Assembly (NCBI RefSeq): GCF_000515275.1
Contig: NZ_KI911560.1
Location: 2,480,001 to 2,544,000 of the forward strand
Reading direction: 5' to 3'
Source of the DNA: Methylophilus sp. 5
GTDB lineage: Bacteria > Pseudomonadota > Gammaproteobacteria > Burkholderiales > Methylophilaceae
DNA length: 64,000 nucleotides
Shown here: positions 48,665 through 57,480 of the stretch, piece after piece
Layout: each line of letters opens with the position of its first letter
Numbering within the stretch: position 1 is the stretch's first letter
Position numbers and translations under genes: made by a program
The notes under the pieces: generated by a model
Database searches by the model: none
Seen by the model: the letters and a program-made list of their open reading frames with translations, nothing else
Told to the model about the DNA's origin: nothing

Positions 48665-49579
48665 ATGAGTCAATACCTCACCGCCGCCCTCTACAAATTT
48701 GTCACGTTAAATGACTACAAAGACTTGCAACAACCGATTTTAGAGGCCTGCCAACAGCGGCATATTAAAGGCACTTTGCTACTGGCGAATGAAGGCATTA
48801 ACGGCACCATTGCCGGTGCAGCGGATGATATTGCGTCTATTCTGACGTATTTGCGCCAGGACCCGCGTTTGGTCGACCTGGAACATAAAGAATCGTGGGC
48901 AGATAGCCATCCGTTTTACCGCATGAAAGTTAAACTCAAAAAAGAAATCGTCACCATGGGGGTGCAAGGTGTAGATCCGAATGACGTCGTGGGCACCTAT
49001 GTCAAGCCAGAGGACTGGAATGCCATTATTTCAGACCCCGACGTGATTGTGTTGGATACCCGTAATGACTATGAGGTACACATTGGCACCTTTAAAGGCG
49101 CCATAGACCCAAAAACCACGACGTTCCGTGAGTTTCCCAAATACGTTGCCGACAACCTGGATAAAACCAAACATAAAAAAGTGGCCATGTTCTGCACCGG
49201 CGGTATCCGTTGTGAAAAAGCGTCTTCTTTCATGAAGCAACAAGGCTTCGAAGAGGTGTATCACTTGCAAGGCGGTATCCTCAAATACCTTGAGACTATT
49301 CCTAAAGAGGAAAGCTTGTGGGAGGGTGATTGCTTTGTGTTTGACCAGCGGGTGGCTGTGAAACATGGGCTGGAGGTGGGCGACCATGATCAATGCTATG
49401 CCTGCCGCATGCCACTGACGCAAGCAGAAATGCAAAGCGAGCAATACGAGGCTGGGATTTCTTGCCCGTATTGCTTTGACAAACTCTCTGCCGAGAAAAA
49501 AGAAGCGCTCCGTGAGCGGCAAAAGCAGGTCAAACTGGCTAAGTTACGCGGTAAACAGCATATCGGCGAACAGAACTAA
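48665..49579 (+). CDS. trhO: TrhO, tRNA U34 hydroxylase (rhodanese family)
   Basis: 304 residues. N-terminal acylphosphatase-like domain, then a rhodanese domain with the active-site Cys in [10 protein letters not shown] (near 180) and a C-terminal cysteine-rich part (C-Y-A-C-R, C-P-Y-C). The YceA/TrhO family hydroxylates uridine 34 of tRNA. It is a stand-alone gene convergent with the integrase. Confidence 0.92.
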
Positions 49580-49685: not shown

Positions 49686-50669
49686 TCACATCACATCCAG
49701 TGGGCTACTCACGCCACGCCCGCCCTTATTGAGCACATGCGTATAAATCATAGTGGTTGATACATCACTGTGCCCCAATAACTCCTGCACCGTGCGAATA
49801 TCATAACCGCCTTCCAGCAGATGTGTCGCAAAGCTGTGCCGCAGCGTGTGTGGTGTGGCCAGTTTAGCGATATTGCCCGCCTTGGCAGCCTTTTTTACCG
49901 CGCGTTGCACCGTTTTTTCATCAGCATGGTGGCGGCGAATCTGGTTGTTTGTCGGGTCTATAGAGCGCTTGATGGAAGGAAACACATATTGCCAAGACCA
50001 CTCGCGCCCAGCCCCAGGGTATTTTTTATCAAGCGCCATCGGCATAAACACCTCACCAAAACCTGCCGCCAAGTCCTCATCATGCAACTGTTTTACTTTA
50101 AGCAAATGTTGTTTTAAAGGCTCAATCAAGGCCGCAGGCAGCATAGTAACCCGGTCTTTAAAGCCCTTGCCTTCGCGCACTAAAATCTCCCTTTTAACAA
50201 AGTCTATATCTTTCACCCGCAAACGCAGACACTCCATCACGCGCAAGCCACTACCATATAGCAAACTACCAATCAGCCACATCGTGCCATCCAGCCGGTT
50301 GAGCAGGGCTTGTACCTCAGGCTTGTTAAGCACCACCGGCATGCGCTTAGGCACTTTGGCTTGTGTCACATTGTCCAGCCATGGCAGCTCAATCTCCAGC
50401 ACCTCTTTATATAAAAACAGCAGGGCGCTTTTCGCCTGATTTTGCGTGCTGGCAGACACATTGCGTGCCACCGCCAAATGCGTTAAAAAGTCCTCCACCT
50501 CAGCCACACCCATATCACGCGGATGTCGCTTGCCATGGTGCAAAATATAGCGTTTAATCCAATTTACATATGTATCCTCGGTGCGCTTGCTGTAATGCTT
50601 CACTCGCAACCGCTCTACAATAGAAGGAAACAACTTTGGCGCTGGTTTTACCTCAGGTGTGTTTTCCAT
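49686..50669 (-). CDS. intI: IntI-type integron integrase
   Basis: 327 residues, a tyrosine recombinase. Catalytic residues: Arg143 (G-L-R), His274 and Arg277 (H-T-L-R), His300 (L-G-H) and Tyr309 (T-M-I-Y-T-H). The additional patch that separates IntI from XerC/D is present between motifs I and II (about 195-255, with W-S-W-Q-Y-V-F-P-S). TAGGAG sits upstream of the ATG. It is transcribed away from the cassette array, the usual layout. All key residues are intact and the length is normal, so it is probably functional. Confidence 0.95.
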
Positions 50670-50807
50670 AGCGTAACTCCTAAACTCAGGTGTAATATAA
50701 AGATACTCCTCATTGATTTTATTATGATAAATAAATCTATAAATTTTATAGCCCCCAGACTAAATAAAATATTATTGTCGTTTTTGGGGTCTAATTAACG
50801 TTAGGTT
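50670..50807. other. attI-like recombination region of the integron
   Basis: AT-rich stretch between intI and the first cassette. It ends in AACGTTAGGT (50798-50807), whose G|TTAGG core matches the crossover point of the attC R' boxes, so the first cassette starts at 50801. The cassette promoter would be expected here; none was confidently recognised. No LexA-type palindrome was seen. Confidence 0.7.
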
Positions 50808-50812
50808 TAATA

Positions 50813-51163
50813 ATGAGCAACTTAAAGAAATTGCTTTCTATCTTATTAATTTGGCCATTAACTTGCTTTGCAGATGGAAAGACAGCTTGGAAATTTGACC
50901 AAGCCAGAAACGTTGCAACAGTTACAACAAAAAAAGTAATGCTAGAAAAATACCCCATATTAATGGCTATACATTATGCACATGATGACTCTTGGGCATT
51001 TACCTGTGGCACAACAAACAAATCTGAAGACCTGATGCTAGTCAGCATGGGACAAATCGTAGATCTAGACCCAACGCTGCGCAATATTGCAGATTTACCG
51101 CCTGGTTGGAGTGCTACAAGAAAAACGATAAATTCAAATTGGGTTCGTATTAAAGATGAGTAA
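50813..51163 (+). CDS. Cassette 1: secreted protein, DUF2185/Imm33-like C-terminal part
   Basis: 116 residues. A signal peptide ends near L-T-C-F-A-D. The mature part has H-D-D-S-W-A-F near 60 and M-G-Q-I-V-D-L-D-P-T-L then L-P-P-G-W-S-A, recalling the DUF2185/Imm33 pattern seen in other cassette proteins, though normally without a signal peptide. The stop is at 51161-51163, just before attC1. The function is unknown; the family call is tentative. Confidence 0.7.
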   Translation: MSNLKKLLSILLIWPLTCFADGKTAWKFDQARNVATVTTKKVMLEKYPILMAIHYAHDDSWAFTCGTTNKSEDLMLVSMGQIVDLDPTLRNIADLPPGWSATRKTINSNWVRIKDE

Positions 51164-51274
51164 ACCTAACCCATCAGTCAAGCGGGACTGGCGAAAGCGC
51201 GCTTTGAATAAGCAATTATTAATAACGAGGGTTGAGCCACCACTGTCGCCAGCCCCTTACTTCAAACGTTAGGA
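51164..51274 (+). repeat. attC1 (long form, 111 bases)
   Basis: R'' ACCTAAC (51164-51170) and R' GTTAGGA (51268-51274). Inner arms GGG-A-CTGGCGA and TCGCCAG-CCC pair with one extrahelical A. A long central segment (about 45 bases) distinguishes it from the 58-61-base sites; attC10 shares this segment. Confidence 0.93.
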
Positions 51275-51280
51275 GGCTAT

Positions 51281-51727
51281 GTGAGCACCAAGAACATTGA
51301 CCCACTGCATTGGTTCGGCTCTGCCTTTACAGCCTCTACGGTTCTTTGTCTTTTCAGCATGGTTGCCACATTTTTTATAAAAACAGATAGCACCGCATTG
51401 GGTATCTTCCTCTGGCAAGTTATTCTTGGCTTCTCATATACCCCTGCAATTCTTGTTTGTTCAATACCTCTCACTTGGCTTACCTGGCGACTCATCAAAA
51501 ACTACCAGCTAAGCAGAGTCTTTTCAGCTCTGGCGGTTGGGGTAAGTACAGCATTGCTTGTAGCCGCTTCTAACCTTCCATATTTTGTAAGTGTGCATTT
51601 GTTGCCAGTACCTTATGATCTACTAGTTGTTACAGCGGGTGTGGCTTTAAACATTGCGGCCTTTTTATGGCTATCGTCGCCACCTAACCCATCATTCAAG
51701 CGGGACTGGCTAAAGCCAGCCCCTTAA
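51281..51727 (+). CDS. Cassette 2: four-segment membrane protein reading into attC
   Basis: 148 residues starting at GTG 51281, with GGAGG just upstream (51272-51276). Four hydrophobic segments (about 12-32, 42-62, 76-96, 108-128) suggest an inner-membrane protein. The last residues (P-P-N-P-S-F-K-R-D-W-L-K-P-A-P) are encoded by attC2 itself, a typical cassette feature where the gene uses the site as its 3' end. No family was recognised. Confidence 0.7.
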   Translation: MSTKNIDPLHWFGSAFTASTVLCLFSMVATFFIKTDSTALGIFLWQVILGFSYTPAILVCSIPLTWLTWRLIKNYQLSRVFSALAVGVSTALLVAASNLPYFVSVHLLPVPYDLLVVTAGVALNIAAFLWLSSPPNPSFKRDWLKPAP

Positions 51728-51741
51728 TTCAAACGTTAGGC
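51682..51741 (+). repeat. attC2 (60 bases)
   Basis: R'' ACCTAAC (51682-51688), R' GTTAGGC (51735-51741). Inner hairpin GGG-A-CTGGC / TAAA / GCCAG-CCC with extrahelical A. Identical to attC3 except for the first base. Confidence 0.95.
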
Positions 51742-52040
51742 CTAGCTAAAACCACAGTGTAGCTGCCAAGCCCGTAGTTATTGCCTCGCAGAGCATCGGT
51801 TTTTAGTTTTATTTGGCGTTGCAGGTCGGTGTGGTTTGTTGCGCCGCAGGTCAGTTTAGTTTGGGTGGTTAGTGGTTTCAGGTTTCGTTGGGCTAAGCAC
51901 GTTAAAGTCAGTTAAATTGGTGTTGCCGCTGTAGGTTTTAGCTTTGGTGGTTTTAAGGTAAAGTTTCAGTCAATTCACGGTTTGGGGTCAGTGCTCATAG
52001 CAACATGGTTTCATATTCACGGTGGGTTGTTGTCTCAGCA
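51742..52040 (+). other. Cassette 3: ORF-less cassette
   Basis: About 300 bases between attC2 and attC3 with no credible reading frame on either strand. The plus strand is markedly G/T-rich. A segment at 51996-52022 (CATAGCAACAT followed by TATTCACGG) recurs with the same spacing before attC4. It could carry a promoter or an RNA; nothing known was recognised. Confidence 0.75.
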
Positions 52041-52100
52041 GCCTAACCCATCATTCAAGCGGGACTGGCTAAAGCCAGCCCCTTAATTCAAACGTTAGGC
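52041..52100 (+). repeat. attC3 (60 bases)
   Basis: R'' GCCTAAC (52041-52047), R' GTTAGGC (52094-52100), inner hairpin as in attC2. Confidence 0.95.
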
Positions 52101-52115
52101 TTGTCAAAACCAATC

Positions 52116-52343
52116 ATGACTGAAAATTTAATGCGTAAAAAACAAGAAACCTTAGGTCGCTGGGGTCTGACCATTACAGCACTCATGCTTGTTATTAGTT
52201 CTGCCGTTCTGTTTTTTAGCAACGCATCCTCGTGGTTGGTTGGTGGTCTTTTTATTTGCGGGCTTGGGCTACTTTGGCTTGCTTTGGCAGCAAGCGCTAA
52301 AGTTGCGGTCAAACTTGGTAATTTTTTCCCTCTGGGGTTTTAG
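52116..52343 (+). CDS. Cassette 4: small two-segment membrane protein
   Basis: 75 residues from ATG 52116; a later ATG at 52131 (M-R-K-K-Q-E-T) is an alternative. Two hydrophobic segments (about 15-35 and 38-60) follow a positively charged start. The frame is open upstream through a TTG at 52101, next to attC3. No family recognised. Confidence 0.65.
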   Translation: MTENLMRKKQETLGRWGLTITALMLVISSAVLFFSNASSWLVGGLFICGLGLLWLALAASAKVAVKLGNFFPLGF

Positions 52344-52390
52344 TTCATGGCAACATTTGTCCTTATTCACGGGCTGTGCTTTTCTCACCA

Positions 52391-52448
52391 GCCTAACCCA
52401 TCATTCAAGCGGGACGCCTAACGGCGCCCCTTAATTCAAACGTTAGGG
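52391..52448 (+). repeat. attC4 (58 bases)
   Basis: R'' GCCTAAC (52391-52397), R' GTTAGGG (52442-52448). Inner hairpin GGG-A-CGCC / TAAC / GGCG-CCC. Same body as attC8. Confidence 0.95.
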
Positions 52449-52672
52449 TTTAGCTGTTTTAATTAAGTGAAATATGTAGCGTTTGCGGTATTAAGCAGCG
52501 GTTTAATGTGGTGGTATTTTAAGGTGTTTAGGCTTGGCTGGCGTTTAGGTGGTGGTGGTTTGCAGCCTCGCTGGTTTAAGTAAGGTTTAGGTGGGCGCAG
52601 TGTTTATGTCTGTGCTTTTTTTAATATTCAGTTTGGTGGGGGTTGATATGTTGCAGGTCTTTGCTAGCTTTG
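52449..52672 (+). other. Cassette 5: ORF-less cassette, copy A of a duplicated type
   Basis: No reading frame above background. G/T-rich on the plus strand. It is about 90% identical by eye to cassette 7 (53541-53763), including the GTTTAGCTGTTTTA start and the TTTTTGCTAGC-like end. It probably carries a noncoding function (promoter or RNA) or is a duplicated passenger. Confidence 0.8.
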
Positions 52673-52732
52673 CCCTAACCCGTCATTCAACTGGGACACG
52701 CTAAAGCGTGCCCGTTAATTCAAACGTTAGGC
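52673..52732 (+). repeat. attC5 (60 bases)
   Basis: R'' CCCTAAC (52673-52679) complements the GTTAGGG that precedes this cassette; R' GTTAGGC (52726-52732). Inner hairpin GGG-A-CACGC / TAAA / GCGTG-CCC. Confidence 0.94.
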
Positions 52733-52747
52733 GTCGGAAGGAACGGT

Positions 52748-53467
52748 ATGCAACTTCCAAATTGGGCAAAGATCCTGTGGTGGTCGATCCTCGTCGGAGT
52801 CCTCACCTACTTCCTGCGCGAACGCCTGCCCGATCTACTCACTGGCAAGGCGGCAGCCGCCGACATCGCTGCGTTCGGCGTATGGATGGCACTGCTGTTG
52901 GCTCCGTTGTTCAACGAAGTCACGCTTCTCGGAGTGACTCTCAAGAATCAAATTGAGGAGCTGAAAGACCACATAGCTACACAGATCGCCGATGTCCGCG
53001 CAGATGTTCGAAACGCGGTAGATGTAAGAGCCACGGTGAGCCCAACCTTCAATCTTCCTGGCCCGCCCTCAGATGCGCAGCTACCCGCAATCGAAGCTCA
53101 AGTTAAGGCAGCAGTTGCCGCTGCACTTGCAGAGCATGGGTCGTCTACACCAGTATCCACAGATTTCGTTGTCTCAGACGACGTAGCGTACTTGTTCGCC
53201 ACCCGATATCACATCGAGTCAGAGTTGCGGCGCTTGGCATCTGACAGAGAGATCGGCGCGACCATAAGACGAGTACCGCCAACACATCTTCTGTCCCGCT
53301 CTTTGGTCGAAAGTGGCTTGCTAAGTCCGCGCCTGGGAAATGCAATTCGAGAGGTGTACTCAGTTTGCTCGCCAGCAATTCACGGTGAACCTGTAACCGC
53401 CGCGCAGGTATCGTTCGTCCGCGACGTTGGCCCGGAGTTGATCGCCGCACTGAGGTCGATCGAGTGA
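52748..53467 (+). CDS. Cassette 6: membrane-anchored protein with coiled coil and DUF4145-like end
   Basis: 239 residues from ATG 52748, with GGAAGGAAC upstream. Two hydrophobic segments (about 8-22 and 38-58), a probable coiled coil (N-Q-I-E-E-L-K-D-H-I-A-T-Q-I-A-D-V near 66-90), and a helical C-terminal domain (about 145-239) with L-R-R-L-A-S and C-S-P-A-I-H-G-E that recalls DUF4145/HEPN-like proteins. It is clearly more GC-rich than neighbouring cassettes and has a different attC, pointing to recent capture. Function unknown. Confidence 0.72.
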   Translation: MQLPNWAKILWWSILVGVLTYFLRERLPDLLTGKAAAADIAAFGVWMALLLAPLFNEVTLLGVTLKNQIEELKDHIATQIADVRADVRNAVDVRATVSPTFNLPGPPSDAQLPAIEAQVKAAVAAALAEHGSSTPVSTDFVVSDDVAYLFATRYHIESELRRLASDREIGATIRRVPPTHLLSRSLVESGLLSPRLGNAIREVYSVCSPAIHGEPVTAAQVSFVRDVGPELIAALRSIE

Positions 53468-53468
53468 C

Positions 53469-53540
53469 GCCTAACCCTTCCATCGAGGGGATGCCCAAAA
53501 GGCTGCGCCTTTTGTGCACCCCTCATGTCAAACGTTAGGG
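53469..53540 (+). repeat. attC6 (72 bases, different lineage)
   Basis: R'' GCCTAAC (53469-53475), R' GTTAGGG (53534-53540). Inner hairpin GGGG-A-TGC...CAAAAGGC / TGC / GCCTTTTG...GCA-CCCC, again with one extrahelical A, but otherwise unlike the other sites. Confidence 0.92.
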
Positions 53541-53763
53541 TTTAGCTGTTTTACTTAAGTTAAATGTGCAGCGTTTGCGCTATTAAGCAGCGGTTTAATG
53601 TGGTGCGGTTTTAAGGTGTTTAGGGTTGGCTGGCGTTTAGGTTGTGCTGGTTTGCAGCAGCGCTGGTTTAAGTAAGGTTTAGGTGGGCGCAGCGTTAATG
53701 TCTGTGCTTTTTTTAATATTGCGTTTGGTGGGGGTTACATGTTGCAGGTTTTTGCTAGCTTTG
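53541..53763 (+). other. Cassette 7: ORF-less cassette, copy B of a duplicated type
   Basis: Near-duplicate of cassette 5, with scattered substitutions over about 225 bases and no clear indels larger than a few bases. No reading frame is preserved between the copies. Confidence 0.8.
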
Positions 53764-53824
53764 CCCTAACCCGTCATTCAACTGGGACGCGACTACGTCG
53801 CGCCCGTTAATTCGAACGTTAGGC
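53764..53824 (+). repeat. attC7 (61 bases)
   Basis: R'' CCCTAAC (53764-53770), R' GTTAGGC (53818-53824). Inner hairpin GGG-A-CGCGAC / TAC / GTCGCG-CCC: the same backbone as attC5 but with a fully different, still perfectly paired, stem. Confidence 0.94.
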
Positions 53825-53845
53825 TATTGATAAATACACACGGAA

Positions 53846-54178
53846 ATGAAAAATATGCAATTAAATGAAATAGCTGAACTCGCAATGAAAATTCGAGAAA
53901 AATACCATCTGTTGGAGAAAAAGCATCATGGGAGTGAGTGGACTATTGAAGAAGATGCACTGGCTTTCTTAACTGATGCTAGCTTGGTGGGTCGTCTCAC
54001 TATGTCCCAGCAGGGACGTTGGCCATCTGGAGACGAAGACTTATCGCAACTCAAACACAAGCTTGGAGAAAGTGTCTGGTGGTTAATCGTGCTATCACAG
54101 CGAATGAACATTGACATTTGCGAGGTAGTGGAAACGTTTCTAAAGAATACAGAAGATAAGTTGAGCAGTATTAAATAG
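53846..54178 (+). CDS. Cassette 8: MazG-like nucleotide pyrophosphohydrolase homologue
   Basis: 110 residues, all helical. The pattern W-T-I-E-E-D-A-L-A-F-L-T-D-A-S near 32-46 and K-L-G-E-S-V-W-W-L-I-V-L-S-Q-R-M-N-I-D-I near 71-90 matches the two metal-binding helices of MazG-type NTP pyrophosphohydrolases, but the usual E-E-x-x-E and E-x-x-D sets are incomplete (Gly-Glu-Ser in place of Gly-Asp-Val). It could be a diverged or inactive homologue. Its stop lies about 40 bases before attC8. Confidence 0.68.
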   Translation: MKNMQLNEIAELAMKIREKYHLLEKKHHGSEWTIEEDALAFLTDASLVGRLTMSQQGRWPSGDEDLSQLKHKLGESVWWLIVLSQRMNIDICEVVETFLKNTEDKLSSIK

Positions 54179-54215
54179 TTTTATGTTCATCAAAAACCAT
54201 GCAAATCAAAATTAT

Positions 54216-54273
54216 GCCTAACCCATCATTCAAGCGGGACGCCTAACGGCGCCCCTTAATTCAAACGTTAGGC
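54216..54273 (+). repeat. attC8 (58 bases)
   Basis: R'' GCCTAAC (54216-54222), R' GTTAGGC (54267-54273). Inner hairpin GGG-A-CGCC / TAAC / GGCG-CCC, as attC4. Confidence 0.95.
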
Positions 54274-54290
54274 ATTTATTAAGGAATCTC

Positions 54291-54620
54291 ATGACACGTA
54301 GCGAAAGAGCAATGCAAGTTTGGCAAATTCTTATTGGTGCAGCTCACAATCGACAAACTCTCACGTATGGTCAAGTCGCAGAACATCTTGAATTTGAAGG
54401 TGCTGGCGTTTTAGCACCAATTTTAGGCTGCATCATGAGTTATTGTGAAGCCAAAAATTTACCGCCACTTACCTGCTTAGTCGTAAATAAAACCACTGGT
54501 TTACCTGGTGCAGGTCTCACGACAGTTGAAGATTTACCCACTGAAAGGGAAGCTGTTTATAACCAAAACTGGTTCGCTATGTATCCTGTGCAAATACCAG
54601 ATTTAGAGTCACATGCCTAA
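54291..54620 (+). CDS. Cassette 9: alkyltransferase-like winged-helix hypothetical protein
   Basis: 109 residues. T-Y-G-Q-V-A-E-H-L near 25-33 followed by I-L-G-C-I-M and L-P-P-L-T-C-L-V-V-N-K-T-T-G-L-P-G resembles the DNA-binding half of alkylguanine transferase-like proteins, without the P-C-H-R active site. It looks like a recurrent cassette family; function unknown. The stop codon at 54618-54620 lies inside the attC9 R'' box. Confidence 0.7.
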   Translation: MTRSERAMQVWQILIGAAHNRQTLTYGQVAEHLEFEGAGVLAPILGCIMSYCEAKNLPPLTCLVVNKTTGLPGAGLTTVEDLPTEREAVYNQNWFAMYPVQIPDLESHA

Positions 54621-54672
54621 CCCATCCATCAAGCGGGACGCCTAGCGGCGCCCCTTATGTCAAACGTTAGAG
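54615..54672 (+). repeat. attC9 (58 bases)
   Basis: R'' GCCTAAC (54615-54621), R' GTTAGAG (54666-54672). Inner hairpin GGG-A-CGCC / TAGC / GGCG-CCC. Confidence 0.94.
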
Positions 54673-54675
54673 GTA

Positions 54676-54939
54676 TTGTTGCTTTTTCTTATTTTCACCA
54701 GATCAGGGTACGATGATTTGATAGCTCAAATCAAACCAAACCCAACATCTATTTGGCTAAATTATGGCGTTTTGACTCCGCTGGAAATCAATGAGCTTCG
54801 AAAATCCAGCTACAATGTTACTGAGTTTTTAAAGCCCATAAACACCAATGACAATGCTGCTTTGGAGGCCGCAATTGAAACAGTGCAAGAGCATCATATC
54901 GGGCAAAATGTTTGGGTTGAGCATATTTCCAACCTCTAA
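54676..54939 (+). CDS. Cassette 10: small hypothetical protein
   Basis: 87 residues. No ATG is available near the 5' end; TTG codons at 54676 and 54679 follow AGAGG (54669-54673) immediately after attC9. The sequence (F-T-R-S-G-Y-D-D-L-I, G-V-L-T-P-L-E-I-N-E-L-R) is soluble and looks like a genuine cassette protein, but the family is not recognised. The stop lies in the R'' box of attC10 (54937-54939). Confidence 0.6.
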   Translation: MLLFLIFTRSGYDDLIAQIKPNPTSIWLNYGVLTPLEINELRKSSYNVTEFLKPINTNDNAALEAAIETVQEHHIGQNVWVEHISNL

Positions 54940-54944
54940 CCCAT
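54934..54944 (+). repeat. attC10, left fragment (interrupted)
   Basis: R'' CTCTAAC (54934-54940), complementary to the GTTAGAG that opens this cassette, followed by CCAT. The site is then broken by the IS110-family element and resumes at about 56526. Confidence 0.85.
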
Positions 54945-54949
54945 CTCTA

Positions 54950-54963
54950 GGGACTTCCGCCAC
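54950..54963 (+). repeat. Left subterminal inverted repeat of the IS
   Basis: GGGACTTCCGCCAC, paired with 56508-56521 (one mismatch). Confidence 0.85.
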
Positions 54964-54984
54964 GTGTCAAGCAAAACCCTCCTG

Positions 54985-55012
54985 AACACCCGAGTTTTCG
55001 GGTGTTTTTATT
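54985..55012 (+). terminator. Terminator inside the IS left end
   Basis: Arms AACACCCGA (54985-54993) and TCGGGTGTT (54998-55006), loop GTTT, then TTTATTT. It would stop transcripts entering from the cassette array. Confidence 0.85.
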
Positions 55013-55327
55013 TGTTTCATATTCATAGCATCACAGCAGCCATACCTGCCAGTTTTTGATAGCCCATAAAGGGTTAAACTGCATCTCTCTAGTCGGCCTT
55101 ATTGCGGATCATTGGCTACTTCGCGGGCCAGGATAATAGCCGCGCACAGAGACCTCATTCATTCATTCATCGGCCTAACAAGAACGCACTGATCAGGCTT
55201 GTTCTTTTGAAAGTCGGCCATTGGGTTAGTCAGGTTCTCTCTGTGCTCGGTCTAACCTCTTTGCTATCTGCTTTGGCAGGGTTGGTTCATTGATTTAAGC
55301 TGAATTTACAACTCGTTTAAAGCGGCT
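55013..55327 (-). ncRNA. Noncoding IS end; possible bridge RNA region
   Basis: No gene is visible. IS1111-group elements are known to have their noncoding, bridge-RNA-bearing end 3' of the transposase gene, which is where this stretch lies. GGTTAG (55224-55229) and CTAACC (55252-55257) are complementary and could form a stem; TGGGTTAG (55222-55229) is complementary to the CTAACCCA of attC sites, as a target guide would be. A TTCA repeat (four units) lies at about 55157-55171. The RNA itself is inferred. Confidence 0.4.
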
Positions 55328-56428
55328 TCATGCCAGATTTAAATCACGTATGTTGATTTGCCTCTGGCAATTGGCAGCGGGCGCCTGCCAGCGCTGCCAG
55401 ACGTTAGCATCGTATCCAGTGTCTTTTGCCAGTATGGCCCACATCATGCGCGCATGTTTGTTGGCAATGGCGACCAGTGTTTTGTGATAGCCTACGCGCT
55501 GATACACGCTGACTATCCACTGCTGCAAACGGCTGGCTTTGTCTTGCGTTTGTCGCAAGGCAACCTGCAAGGTGCTTTTAGCACCTTGTACCAGCAGGCT
55601 ACGCACATAAGTGTCGCCGCGCCGGCTGGTTCTGCCCAGCCTGGTTTTACCGCCCGAGCTCATCTGTCTGGGCGTGAGTCCCAGCCACGCGGCAAACTGT
55701 CTGCCATTTTTAAACTGACTTGCATTGACAACGGTTGCCAGAGTAGCGCTGGCTGTCAGCGTGCCTATGCCTGTCATCACGGTCAGTCGCAGTGCTGCCG
55801 GTTGTGAGGTGAGATGCTGGCGTATATGCTGGTCACACAGCGCTATGTGTTCATGCACAGATTTCAGATACCGCAGCGATTGCTCTATCGCCAAGCGTAG
55901 CCCTTCGGGGATAGCACAATCGGCGGTCAGCCCTGGTAAAGCGCGTATCAGCTTATCGGCACTGCGAGGCGGCCAAATGCCAAACTCGCCGAGCAATCCA
56001 CGCATACGGTTTAAATGTGCGGTGCGCTCTTCCTTATAGCCTTCACGCAGCCGATGCCAGACCAGTACAGATTGCTGCTCAACGCTTTTAATCGCCACAA
56101 AGCGCATGGTCGGTTGTCTGGCTGCAATGGCAATCGGTTCGGCATCATTGCGGTCATTTTTAGCGGCCATACTTTTACGAAACGGCTGTACAAACTCAGG
56201 CGCCATCAAGCGAGCGGTATGCCCAAGCGCAGCAAACCATCGCCCCCAATGATGCGATGAACCACAGGCTTCCATGGCGATGTTACAAGGCTGCAACTGC
56301 TGCGCCCAAGCCACAAAAGCATCACGTTTAAGCGCTTTGTGATACACCACCGCCCCAGTTACATCCATGGCACACACAGCAAAGACATCTTTTGCCAAAT
56401 CAATCCCTATCGTTGTAACATTGCTCAT
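55328..56428 (-). CDS. IS110-family (IS1111 group) transposase
   Basis: 366 residues. N-terminal RuvC-like DEDD domain: Asp10 (G-I-D-L-A-K), Glu53 (A-M-E-A-C-G), Asp92 and Asp95 (K-N-D-R-N-D-A-E). C-terminal Transposase_20 domain with T-G-I-G-T-L-T-A-S near 220, W-L-G-L-T-P-R-Q-M-S-S-G-G-K with the candidate catalytic serine. It is full length with no frameshift, so the element may be active. IS110 transposases work with a bridge RNA. Confidence 0.94.
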   Translation of the reverse strand: MSNVTTIGIDLAKDVFAVCAMDVTGAVVYHKALKRDAFVAWAQQLQPCNIAMEACGSSHHWGRWFAALGHTARLMAPEFVQPFRKSMAAKNDRNDAEPIAIAARQPTMRFVAIKSVEQQSVLVWHRLREGYKEERTAHLNRMRGLLGEFGIWPPRSADKLIRALPGLTADCAIPEGLRLAIEQSLRYLKSVHEHIALCDQHIRQHLTSQPAALRLTVMTGIGTLTASATLATVVNASQFKNGRQFAAWLGLTPRQMSSGGKTRLGRTSRRGDTYVRSLLVQGAKSTLQVALRQTQDKASRLQQWIVSVYQRVGYHKTLVAIANKHARMMWAILAKDTGYDANVWQRWQAPAANCQRQINIRDLNLA

Positions 56429-56507
56429 GACTTCTCCTCTCGTTTTGATTGAATAATGCTGATCACATTAACTTACCTTCAATCGCGGTTATGGGTTACC
56501 AATTCGA

Positions 56508-56521
56508 GTGGGGGAAGTCCC
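56508..56521 (-). repeat. Right subterminal inverted repeat of the IS
   Basis: GTGGGGGAAGTCCC, paired with 54950-54963. Confidence 0.85.
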
Positions 56522-56525
56522 TTTT

Positions 56526-56628
56526 ATTCAGTCAAGCGGGACTGGCGAAAGCGCACTTCGATGATACAATTTTCAATAACGAGGGTTGAGCCAAATTTAT
56601 CGCCAGCCCCTTATGTCTAACGTTAGGT
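56526..56628 (+). repeat. attC10, right fragment (long form)
   Basis: Continues the interrupted site: CAGTCAAGCGGGACTGGCGA, a central segment similar to that of attC1 (ATAACGAGGGTTGAGCCA), TCGCCAGCCCC and R' GTTAGGT (56622-56628). With the left fragment it would restore a site of about 115 bases. It is the last attC of the array. Confidence 0.9.
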
Positions 56629-57111: not shown

Positions 57112-57480
57112 ATGTCTAATCTGACCGTGGCCGAAATCAAGGCCTTTGTGCCTGCGAAAAACTTCGCGCTTTCCAAGCAGTTTTATCAAGACATGGGCTT
57201 TACCATGGCGTCAGAAGGTGGCGGTGTGGCTTATTTTCACTATGCACACGCGAGTTTTCTGTTGCAGGATTTTTGTGTTGAGAACCTGGCTGAGAATTTT
57301 ATGATGCATCTGCTGGTGCAGGATGTGGATGCCTGGTGGGACAAAATTCAGGAAAGCGGCATTATTCAGACCTATGGCGTCAAAGTATGGCCGATTCAGT
57401 TGCAAAGCTGGGGCATGCGTGATTTTTGCATTGCTGACCCCTCAGGTGTGTTGTGGCGGATTGGGCAAAATGTGGATTGA
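57112..57480 (+). CDS. VOC-family (glyoxalase/bleomycin-resistance-like) protein
   Basis: 122 residues, one beta-alpha-beta-beta-beta unit pair: V-P-A-K-N-F-A-L-S-K-Q-F-Y-Q-D-M-G-F near 13-30 and F-C-I-A-D-P-S-G-V-L-W-R-I near 105-117. Substrate unknown. A hairpin terminator (AGGTCGGC with GCCGGCCT, about 57510-57535) follows. Confidence 0.85.
   Translation: MSNLTVAEIKAFVPAKNFALSKQFYQDMGFTMASEGGGVAYFHYAHASFLLQDFCVENLAENFMMHLLVQDVDAWWDKIQESGIIQTYGVKVWPIQLQSWGMRDFCIADPSGVLWRIGQNVD

What the first reader, a model, noticed from the sequence alone, without database searches (positions are those of the whole stretch)
49686..56628. Sedentary chromosomal integron in a methylotroph
An IntI integrase with all catalytic residues and the IntI-specific patch faces away from an array of ten attC sites (nine intact, one split) with R''/R' boxes RYYYAAC/GTTRRRY at both ends. 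Cassettes all read in the same direction. Most attC sites are variants of one host-specific type, as expected for a resident integron. None of the cassettes encodes a known resistance gene.
Basis: partly seen in the sequence, partly recalled or inferred. Interest (0 to 1): 0.85.

Follow-up and report, generated by a model that had tools for sequence, protein, structure and literature searches.

The report
Chromosomal integron with integrase-less satellite arrays
This methylotroph carries a genuine gene-capturing integron, and the same genome holds a second cassette array with its own capture site but no integrase gene, so one enzyme probably serves several stations around the chromosome.

Summary
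In detail: window 49686-56628 is a resident chromosomal integron with intI (TIGR02249, 472 bits), a 150-nt attI, nine intact attC and a tenth split by an insertion sequence. Outside the window the picture changes. The genome has one intI but a second array about 61 kb away beside mutL, headed by a full-length attI copy (84.8 bits with a model of intI-linked attI only) and sharing one cassette (99.6%) with the window. In 22 genomes of the genus, 17 integrase-less attI occur in 12, many at orthologous positions. Of 25 orthologous satellite pairs (two genera), flank homology stops within 12 nt of the attI end in 19, stops 160-300 nt earlier in 5, and 1 has no usable left flank; none runs over 9 nt past attI. 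At one site no intI is seen in six species, yet two of them with 97-99% identical flanks share no cassettes. Best reading: one IntI acts in trans on several conserved attI platforms. Many integrase-less arrays, however, lack a detectable attI. The IS in attC10 is of the known attC-targeting IS1111 kind. The integron is ordinary; the multi-platform organisation is a new variant, untested at the bench.

The parts
49686..50669 (-). intI, integron integrase, 327 aa
   Evidence: TIGR02249 472 bits; 2a3v
50655..50804 (+). attI, two AGGTGT repeats at the left (the first overlaps the start of intI), R box GTTAG at the right end
   Evidence: block of about 150 nt conserved beside 13 intI genes of the genus, this one included
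50805..51163 (+). cassette 1, 116-aa ORF 50813-51163
   Evidence: 80% over 286 nt to a cassette in G008
51164..51274 (+). attC1 (long, 111 nt)
51275..51681 (+). cassette 2, 148-aa ORF from 51281 (the ORF itself runs on into attC2)
   Evidence: 96% to a cassette in G009's intI array and in a satellite array of G005
51682..51741 (+). attC2
51742..52040 (+). cassette 3, no ORF of 50 aa or more
52041..52100 (+). attC3
52101..52390 (+). cassette 4, 80-aa ORF
52391..52448 (+). attC4
52449..52672 (+). cassette 5, no ORF of 40 aa or more
   Evidence: 91% to cassette 7
52673..52732 (+). attC5
52733..53468 (+). cassette 6, 239-aa ORF
53469..53540 (+). attC6, of a different type from the others
   Evidence: 62 bits, lowest of the nine
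53541..53763 (+). cassette 7, no ORF of 40 aa or more
53764..53824 (+). attC7
53825..54215 (+). cassette 8, 110-aa ORF
   Evidence: 96% to a cassette in G008's intI array
54216..54273 (+). attC8
54274..54614 (+). cassette 9, 109-aa ORF (its end lies in attC9)
54615..54672 (+). attC9
54673..54933 (+). cassette 10, 87-aa ORF (TTG start)
   Evidence: 99.6% to a cassette in the satellite array of the same genome
54934..54945 (+). left piece of split attC10
   Evidence: sequence
54946..56529 (-). IS1111-type insertion sequence, with subterminal repeats 54949-54958 and 56513-56522
55328..56428 (-). DEDD transposase, 366 aa
   Evidence: NF033542 320 bits
55218..55234 (-). predicted right-target guide of the IS RNA (contains CTAACCCA)
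55153..55173 (-). predicted left-target guide of the IS RNA
56530..56628 (+). right piece of split attC10 (long type), end of the array
48665..49579 (+). trhO, left flank
   Evidence: within 3 kb of intI in 13 of 20 fetched loci
57112..57480 (+). conserved right-flank gene (unnamed)
   Evidence: match in 14 of the 20 fetched intI loci

Best explanation
The window holds the integrase-bearing hub of a chromosomal integron with more than one cassette platform. IntI captures cassettes at the attI beside it and, in trans, at a second attI-headed array beside mutL in the same genome (about 61 kb away). Relatives have comparable integrase-less attI platforms, at positions shared between species. The platforms most likely descend from integrons whose intI decayed while attI stayed usable. 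Shown: the intI, the attI and attC sites, the second attI, its recurrence, orthology of sites, and cassette replacement bounded by attI. Inferred: that the present IntI does the work at the satellites, and that their attI is kept by selection.
For: One intI over the family cut-off in the genome. Second array with 7 attC matches in L187 and a full-length attI (84.8 bits; not among the 13 sequences of the model). Shared cassette 99.6%. 17 orphan attI in 12 of 22 genomes (one search set against the intI places); 11 of 17 have an attC at E<=0.001 on the expected side and strand. Orthologous sites with conserved flanks. In 25 orthologous satellite pairs, homology ends within 12 nt of the attI end in both members in 19; no pair runs more than 9 nt past it. 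Site C: no intI in six species and no remnant beside attI, yet the arrays of G002 and G003 (flanks 97.4/98.7% identical) share no stretch over 120 nt. 12 of 21 shared cassette pairs link an intI array with an integrase-less array, 7 of these with an attI-headed one; 0 are at the same orthologous satellite. Same pattern in a second genus.
Against: No recombination was measured. Of the 20 arrays fetched, only 6 have a clear attI by the model, one more is borderline (L189, 12 bits), and one (L205) lies at a second intI; so many integrase-less arrays of the genus lack a recognised attI. 4 of 17 orphan attI have no attC match nearby and 2 only weak ones. In 5 of 25 pairs, the mutL pair G000/G017 among them, homology ends 160-300 nt before the attI end, and 1 pair has no usable left flank. 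attI is seen at mutL in only 2 of 22 genomes (only 1.5 kb or less past mutL was in view). Some satellite attI are degraded (22 bits at G002 site B). Promoter scans were not above chance in either leader. Homologous exchange of whole arrays between strains could mimic part of the pattern.
Confidence: 0.78

Rival explanations
1. A single ordinary sedentary integron; the second array is a CALIN made by off-target insertion of cassettes at a non-attI site, and its attI-like leader is a coincidence.
For: Such off-target formation is one of three CALIN origins proposed by Cury et al., as reported in PMC8618304 (passages). Many arrays of the genus have no recognised attI.
Against: The mutL leader matches all 150 positions of a model built without it (84.8 bits, E 1e-23), is 80% identical to the window's attI, and an attI recurs at G017's mutL (67.8 bits). 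Site B keeps an intI 5' remnant beside attI in G005 (E 1e-6).
Confidence: 0.08
2. The satellites are dead relics. Their arrays differ because cassettes moved before the local intI was lost, or because whole arrays were swapped by homologous recombination.
For: intI remnants at site B and at L301 and L304; decayed attI at some sites; one genome of g22 has only a broken intI.
Against: At site C no intI is seen in any of six species, yet G002 and G003 (flanks 97-99% identical) share no array content over 120 nt. Breakpoints fall at the attI end in 19 of 25 pairs, which random exchange does not predict. The same cassette at 99.6% in both arrays of this genome implies recent movement.
Confidence: 0.17
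3. A mobile (class 1-like) integron recently acquired.
For: A transposase lies in the array.
Against: intI in 20 of 22 genomes of the genus, near trhO in 13 of 20 fetched loci. The IS is of an attC-targeting kind, not a carrier. No resistance family in any cassette. Plasmid records were not searched with intI here.
Confidence: 0.01

Closest known systems
Sedentary chromosomal integrons (e.g. Vibrio, Xanthomonas)
   Same: intI, attI, tandem cassettes of unknown function, host-type attC, genus-wide presence
   Different: Short array; the genome has a second attI-headed array
CALIN (clusters of attC lacking integrase)
   Same: attC array without intI; conserved positions across species as reported for Xanthomonas (PMC12444791, passages)
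   Different: An attI heads the satellite here. IntegronFinder 2 says attI sites outside class 1 are not detected by it (PMC9024848, passages), so such arrays would be filed as plain CALIN
delta-attI-type cassettes of mobile integrons (PMC12901181, passages)
   Same: Additional attI sequence away from intI; L306 has an attI copy inside an array
   Different: Those are mostly truncated attI at the end of single cassettes; here full attI leaders stand at chromosomal loci
IS1111-attC insertion sequences (ISKpn4, ISPst6, ISPa25; PMC11187229, passages and section 9)
   Same: DEDD transposase, subterminal repeats, noncoding region downstream of tnp, insertion in one end of an attC, two short predicted guides in the same order
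   Different: Best transposase match among plasmid records 61%; sits in an environmental chromosomal integron. Not compared with the named elements' own sequences

Membership tests
Integron | IntI with integron-specific domain | tested here: met
   TIGR02249 over cut-off; alignment to 2a3v
Integron | attI beside intI | tested here: met
   conserved block of about 150 nt; array homology ends there in 5 of 5 relatives
Integron | attC sites folding as single strands, bottom strand favoured | tested here: met
   lower energy on the bottom than on the top strand in 9 of 9, mostly by 1-2 kcal/mol; of five refolded with shuffles, bottom z -1.8 to -7.5, top z -2.1 to -5.2, the top z being as low or lower in 3 of 5
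Integron | cassette excision and insertion by IntI | not testable with these tools
   only comparative evidence of turnover
Sedentary chromosomal integron | fixed locus through a lineage with variable cassettes | tested here: met
   trhO within 3 kb of intI in 13 of 20 fetched loci; different arrays in 5 of 5 relatives
Sedentary chromosomal integron | host-type attC dominating the array | tested here: met
   attC6 stands apart from the other eight intact sites; the split tenth resembles attC1
CALIN (second array, outside the window) | attC cluster without nearby intI | tested here: met
CALIN (second array, outside the window) | degraded or off-target remnant without its own attI | tested here: not met
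   full-length attI at L187 4249-4398. Absence of attI is not part of the formal definition
IS1111-attC group | DEDD transposase and subterminal inverted repeats | tested here: met
IS1111-attC group | insertion at one end of an attC | tested here: met
   shown for the window and, by reading, L133; right flank GGGTTAG also in L132, L134, L135, L138, L139, where an attC was not tested by model
IS1111-attC group | seekRNA guides matching both target strands | tested here: inconclusive
   predicted guides agree with their own targets better than with shuffled ones, P 1.5e-4 (9 elements) and 0.003 (10 elements); 10 of the 26 elements were used, picked for ACTTCC-type ends; boundaries chosen by eye, related elements, no RNA data

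The most novel reading that the evidence does not exclude
Methylophilaceae keep polycentric integrons: one integrase maintains several orthologous attI platforms that outlive their own integrase genes by whole speciation series, so that some integrase-less arrays catalogued as degraded CALIN are working stations of a distributed system.
Probability: 0.55. Interest if true: 0.8.

Novelty: new variant of a known kind. Interest (0 to 1): 0.62.

Why it matters
How integrase-less arrays arise and whether they are alive is an open question in the integron field. Here an attI profile separates attI-headed arrays from others, sister species give natural before-and-after pairs, and the prediction that one IntI acts at several chromosomal attI can be tested directly in a methylotroph. 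attI is not sought by the standard tool outside class 1, so such arrays may be overlooked elsewhere.

Tried and rejected
Rfam and tRNA scans of the window gave nothing. No relative of the IS transposase was confirmed in viral contigs. Pfam, NCBIfam and PADLOC gave no function for any cassette; the weak Imm33-like and MazG hits are below cut-off and not used. Sigma-70 scans of both attI leaders found no more than shuffles do, so no Pc promoter is claimed. RNAfold of the IS noncoding region was only mildly unusual (z -2.2). The literature search for 'second attI', 'orphan attI' and the like was useless because it matched 'attitude'. I considered that the attI modules have a sharp left edge and move as units; the alignment of nine modules of one other genus shows gradual decay towards a degenerate intI 5' end in the satellites that keep it. 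I considered that all integrase-less arrays have an attI: not so (6 of 20 clear). Genus intI are not one clade in the tree (6 changes), so strict vertical descent of intI in the genus is not claimed. A first count of breakpoints used eight chosen pairs (8 of 8 within 12 nt); the full count over all 25 pairs of the named sites is 19 and is the one reported.
Full report
WHAT IS IN THE WINDOW. intI lies at 49686-50669 on the minus strand; its product scores 472 bits with TIGR02249 (cut-off 265) and aligns with the solved IntI4 (2a3v) over residues 15-325, with R143, H274, R277, H300, Y309 and the patch region in place (the roles of these residues are recalled). To its right are nine intact attC sites and a tenth split by an insertion sequence. 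A covariance model made from the nine (R1) finds those nine, by construction, and the right piece of the tenth, and nothing else in 64 kb at E<=10. The bottom strand folds with lower energy than the top strand in 9 of 9, mostly by a small margin; against shuffles the two strands of five sites do about equally well.

HOST. Upstream of trhO are fhcD and a formylmethanofuran dehydrogenase subunit C gene, typical of methylotrophs (recalled).

CASSETTES. Seven carry a forward ORF. Cassettes 3, 5 and 7 have none of 50 aa or more; 5 and 7 have none of 40 or more and are 91% identical. No product has a named family at cut-off. Cassette 2 recurs at 96% in G009's intI array and in a satellite array of G005; cassette 8 at 96% and cassette 1 at 80% in G008's intI array. 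Against five relatives (G007, G014, G009, G015, G021) homology on the left ends at 50804-50808, i.e. at the attI end; only cassette 2 (in G009) and a stretch over cassette 3 (73%, in G007) match inside the array.

attI. Beside 13 intI genes of the genus, the window's included, a block of about 150 nt is conserved, with two AGGTGT repeats (33 nt apart in the window), the first over the intI start, and GTTAG at the end in most. Eight further intI loci were left out of the model because their leader was too different, cut off or lacked the end. A sequence-only model of the 13 (R2) was used to look for others.

THE SECOND ARRAY. The genome has one intI over the cut-off. Model R1 finds 16 attC in it at E<=0.01; seven of them lie near 2592.8-2596.1 kb (L187) and the nine others are the intact sites of the window. 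This second array follows mutL and starts with an attI matching all 150 model positions (84.8 bits), 80% identical to the window's, with no intI remnant. One of its cassettes is 99.6% identical to cassette 10 of the window. The two attI are about 61 kb apart.

THE GENUS. In 22 genomes R2 gives 32 attI at E<=0.01; set against the intI places, 15 lie at intI and 17 do not, the latter in 12 genomes. 11 of the 17 have an attC at E<=0.001 on the expected side and strand, 2 a weak one, 4 none. Ten of the 12 genomes have one intI at E<=1e-60; G001 and G002 have two, G002's second being a poor match with a stop. Of the 20 arrays fetched, six have a clear attI, one is borderline, and one (L205) lies at that second intI of G002; the rest have none that the model sees. 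G006, G010, G012, G013, G018 and G019 have no R2 hit at all although four of them have an intI, so the model is blind to some lineages.

ORTHOLOGY AND TURNOVER. All-against-all comparison puts satellites at shared sites: A beside mutL (G000, G017, G006, the last without a seen attI), B (G009, G005, G002), C (G003, G002, G007, G009, G005, G016), D (G008, G011), E (G003, G002; attI scores very weak, 12 and 9 bits), F (G011, G020, one flank only). mutL itself was checked in 22 genomes, with at most 1.5 kb beyond it in view: attI in 2, attC at E<=0.001 in 2 and weakly in 1. For all 25 pairs within sites A-F and three sites of another genus, among loci with an attI end, the end of left-flank homology was measured against the attI end: 19 end within 12 nt in both members; 5 end 160-300 nt earlier (the A pair, two B pairs with the decayed G002 attI, two C pairs); the F pair has no left match. 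None runs more than 9 nt past attI. In 23 of the 24 pairs with a left match no inner match over 120 nt remains before homology resumes 0.7-5.3 kb on; one pair (L250/L251) has one. Pairs that share a member are not independent. The clearest case is site C in G002 and G003: flanks 97.4 and 98.7% identical, two versus three attC matches, no shared cassette. Since no intI is seen at site C in any of six species, replacement there took place without a local intI, unless whole arrays were swapped by homologous exchange.

CASSETTE TRAFFIC. From 192 attC in 37 loci, none of mixed strand, 173 cassettes were cut; 21 pairs agree at 75% or more over 80% of the shorter: 12 between an intI array and an integrase-less array (7 of them with an attI-headed one: L187, L188, L190, L193, L247), 7 between intI arrays (one within the window), 2 between arrays counted as integrase-less (one of them involving L205), and none at the same orthologous satellite. 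Some integrase-less contigs of draft genomes (such as L201) could be detached parts of an intI array.

ANOTHER GENUS. R2 hits 58 of 187 family genomes (hits near E 0.01 are probably chance). G178 and G179 have five and four attI but one intI each, G178's broken. Three satellite loci of each pair one to one, with breakpoints at attI, and two of the loci (L301, L304) keep the first 45-63 codons of a decayed intI. This supports origin by intI loss with attI retained. L306 has a second attI copy inside its array.

THE INSERTION SEQUENCE. The element 54946-56529 has an IS110-type transposase (NF033542, 320 bits), repeats AGGGACTTCC/GGAAGTCCCT near its ends, and a 0.38-kb noncoding stretch downstream of tnp, as in IS1111 elements (PMC11187229, passages). 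A TC dinucleotide is shared at both junctions. L133 shows the same junction in an attC-like site of another genus. In the noncoding region a well conserved block contains CTAACCC, the complement of the attC flank, followed by a second block ending in GA. L143 appears to sit at the other end of an attC and both of its blocks are changed to suit. Own-target agreement exceeds shuffled pairing (P 1.5e-4 left, 0.003 right); 10 of the 26 elements were used, those with similar ends, boundaries were chosen by eye and the elements are related. The order of guides is that reported for ISKpn4 (section 9). This makes the IS a likely new member of a known group.

A CHIMERIC attC. Cassette 10's copy beside mutL ends in a short attC; in the window the piece right of the IS is of the long type. 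Recombination between two IS copies, with loss of what lay between, would explain this, but is not shown.

LITERATURE. Searches for integrons with Methylophilus (4 of 4 titles seen) and Methylophilaceae (10 of 18 titles seen) listed no description of this integron; PMC10872708 (passages) says none of the small insertions in its streamlined Methylophilaceae genomes were bona fide integrons, and PMC11089894 (passages) places Methylophilaceae attC in a marine attC sub-clade. PMC12444791 (passages) reports CALIN at conserved loci in Xanthomonas and says CALIN can be mobilised in trans; attI at their heads is not mentioned in the passages seen (12 of 14 places). PMC8618304 (passages) lists three proposed origins of CALIN, loss of intI among them. 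The listings of searches showed no title on attI-headed arrays without integrase; most subscription papers are not held, so this is not proof of novelty.

VERDICT. The integron is an ordinary sedentary one. The multi-platform organisation is well supported by comparison, unproven by experiment, and a new variant of a known kind.

Noticed in passing
window 54946-56529: IS1111-type element in attC10 with predicted target guides; a relative (L143) apparently inserted at the other attC end carries correspondingly changed guides.
   Followed up: yes
window 54934-54945 and 56530-56628: The two pieces of attC10 appear to come from two attC types (compare the uninterrupted copy at L187 6419-6478), as if IS-IS recombination had removed cassettes.
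   Followed up: partly
window 52449-52672 and 53541-53763: Two 91% identical cassettes without an ORF of 40 aa or more; cassette 3 resembles first-position cassettes of G007 and G008 with at most short ORFs. Function unknown.
   Followed up: partly
L306 4081-4418 (G178): A second attI copy (94.7% to L300 3165-3501) inside a cassette array, resembling an attI-ended cassette.
   Followed up: partly
G078:C1:1080288-1080954 and 1227414-1228372: Two intI, each next to an attI hit and each matched in two pieces, with in-frame stops reported in three of the four pieces.
   Followed up: no
window 53469-53540: attC6 differs from the host type, suggesting that cassette 6 came from another lineage.
   Followed up: no
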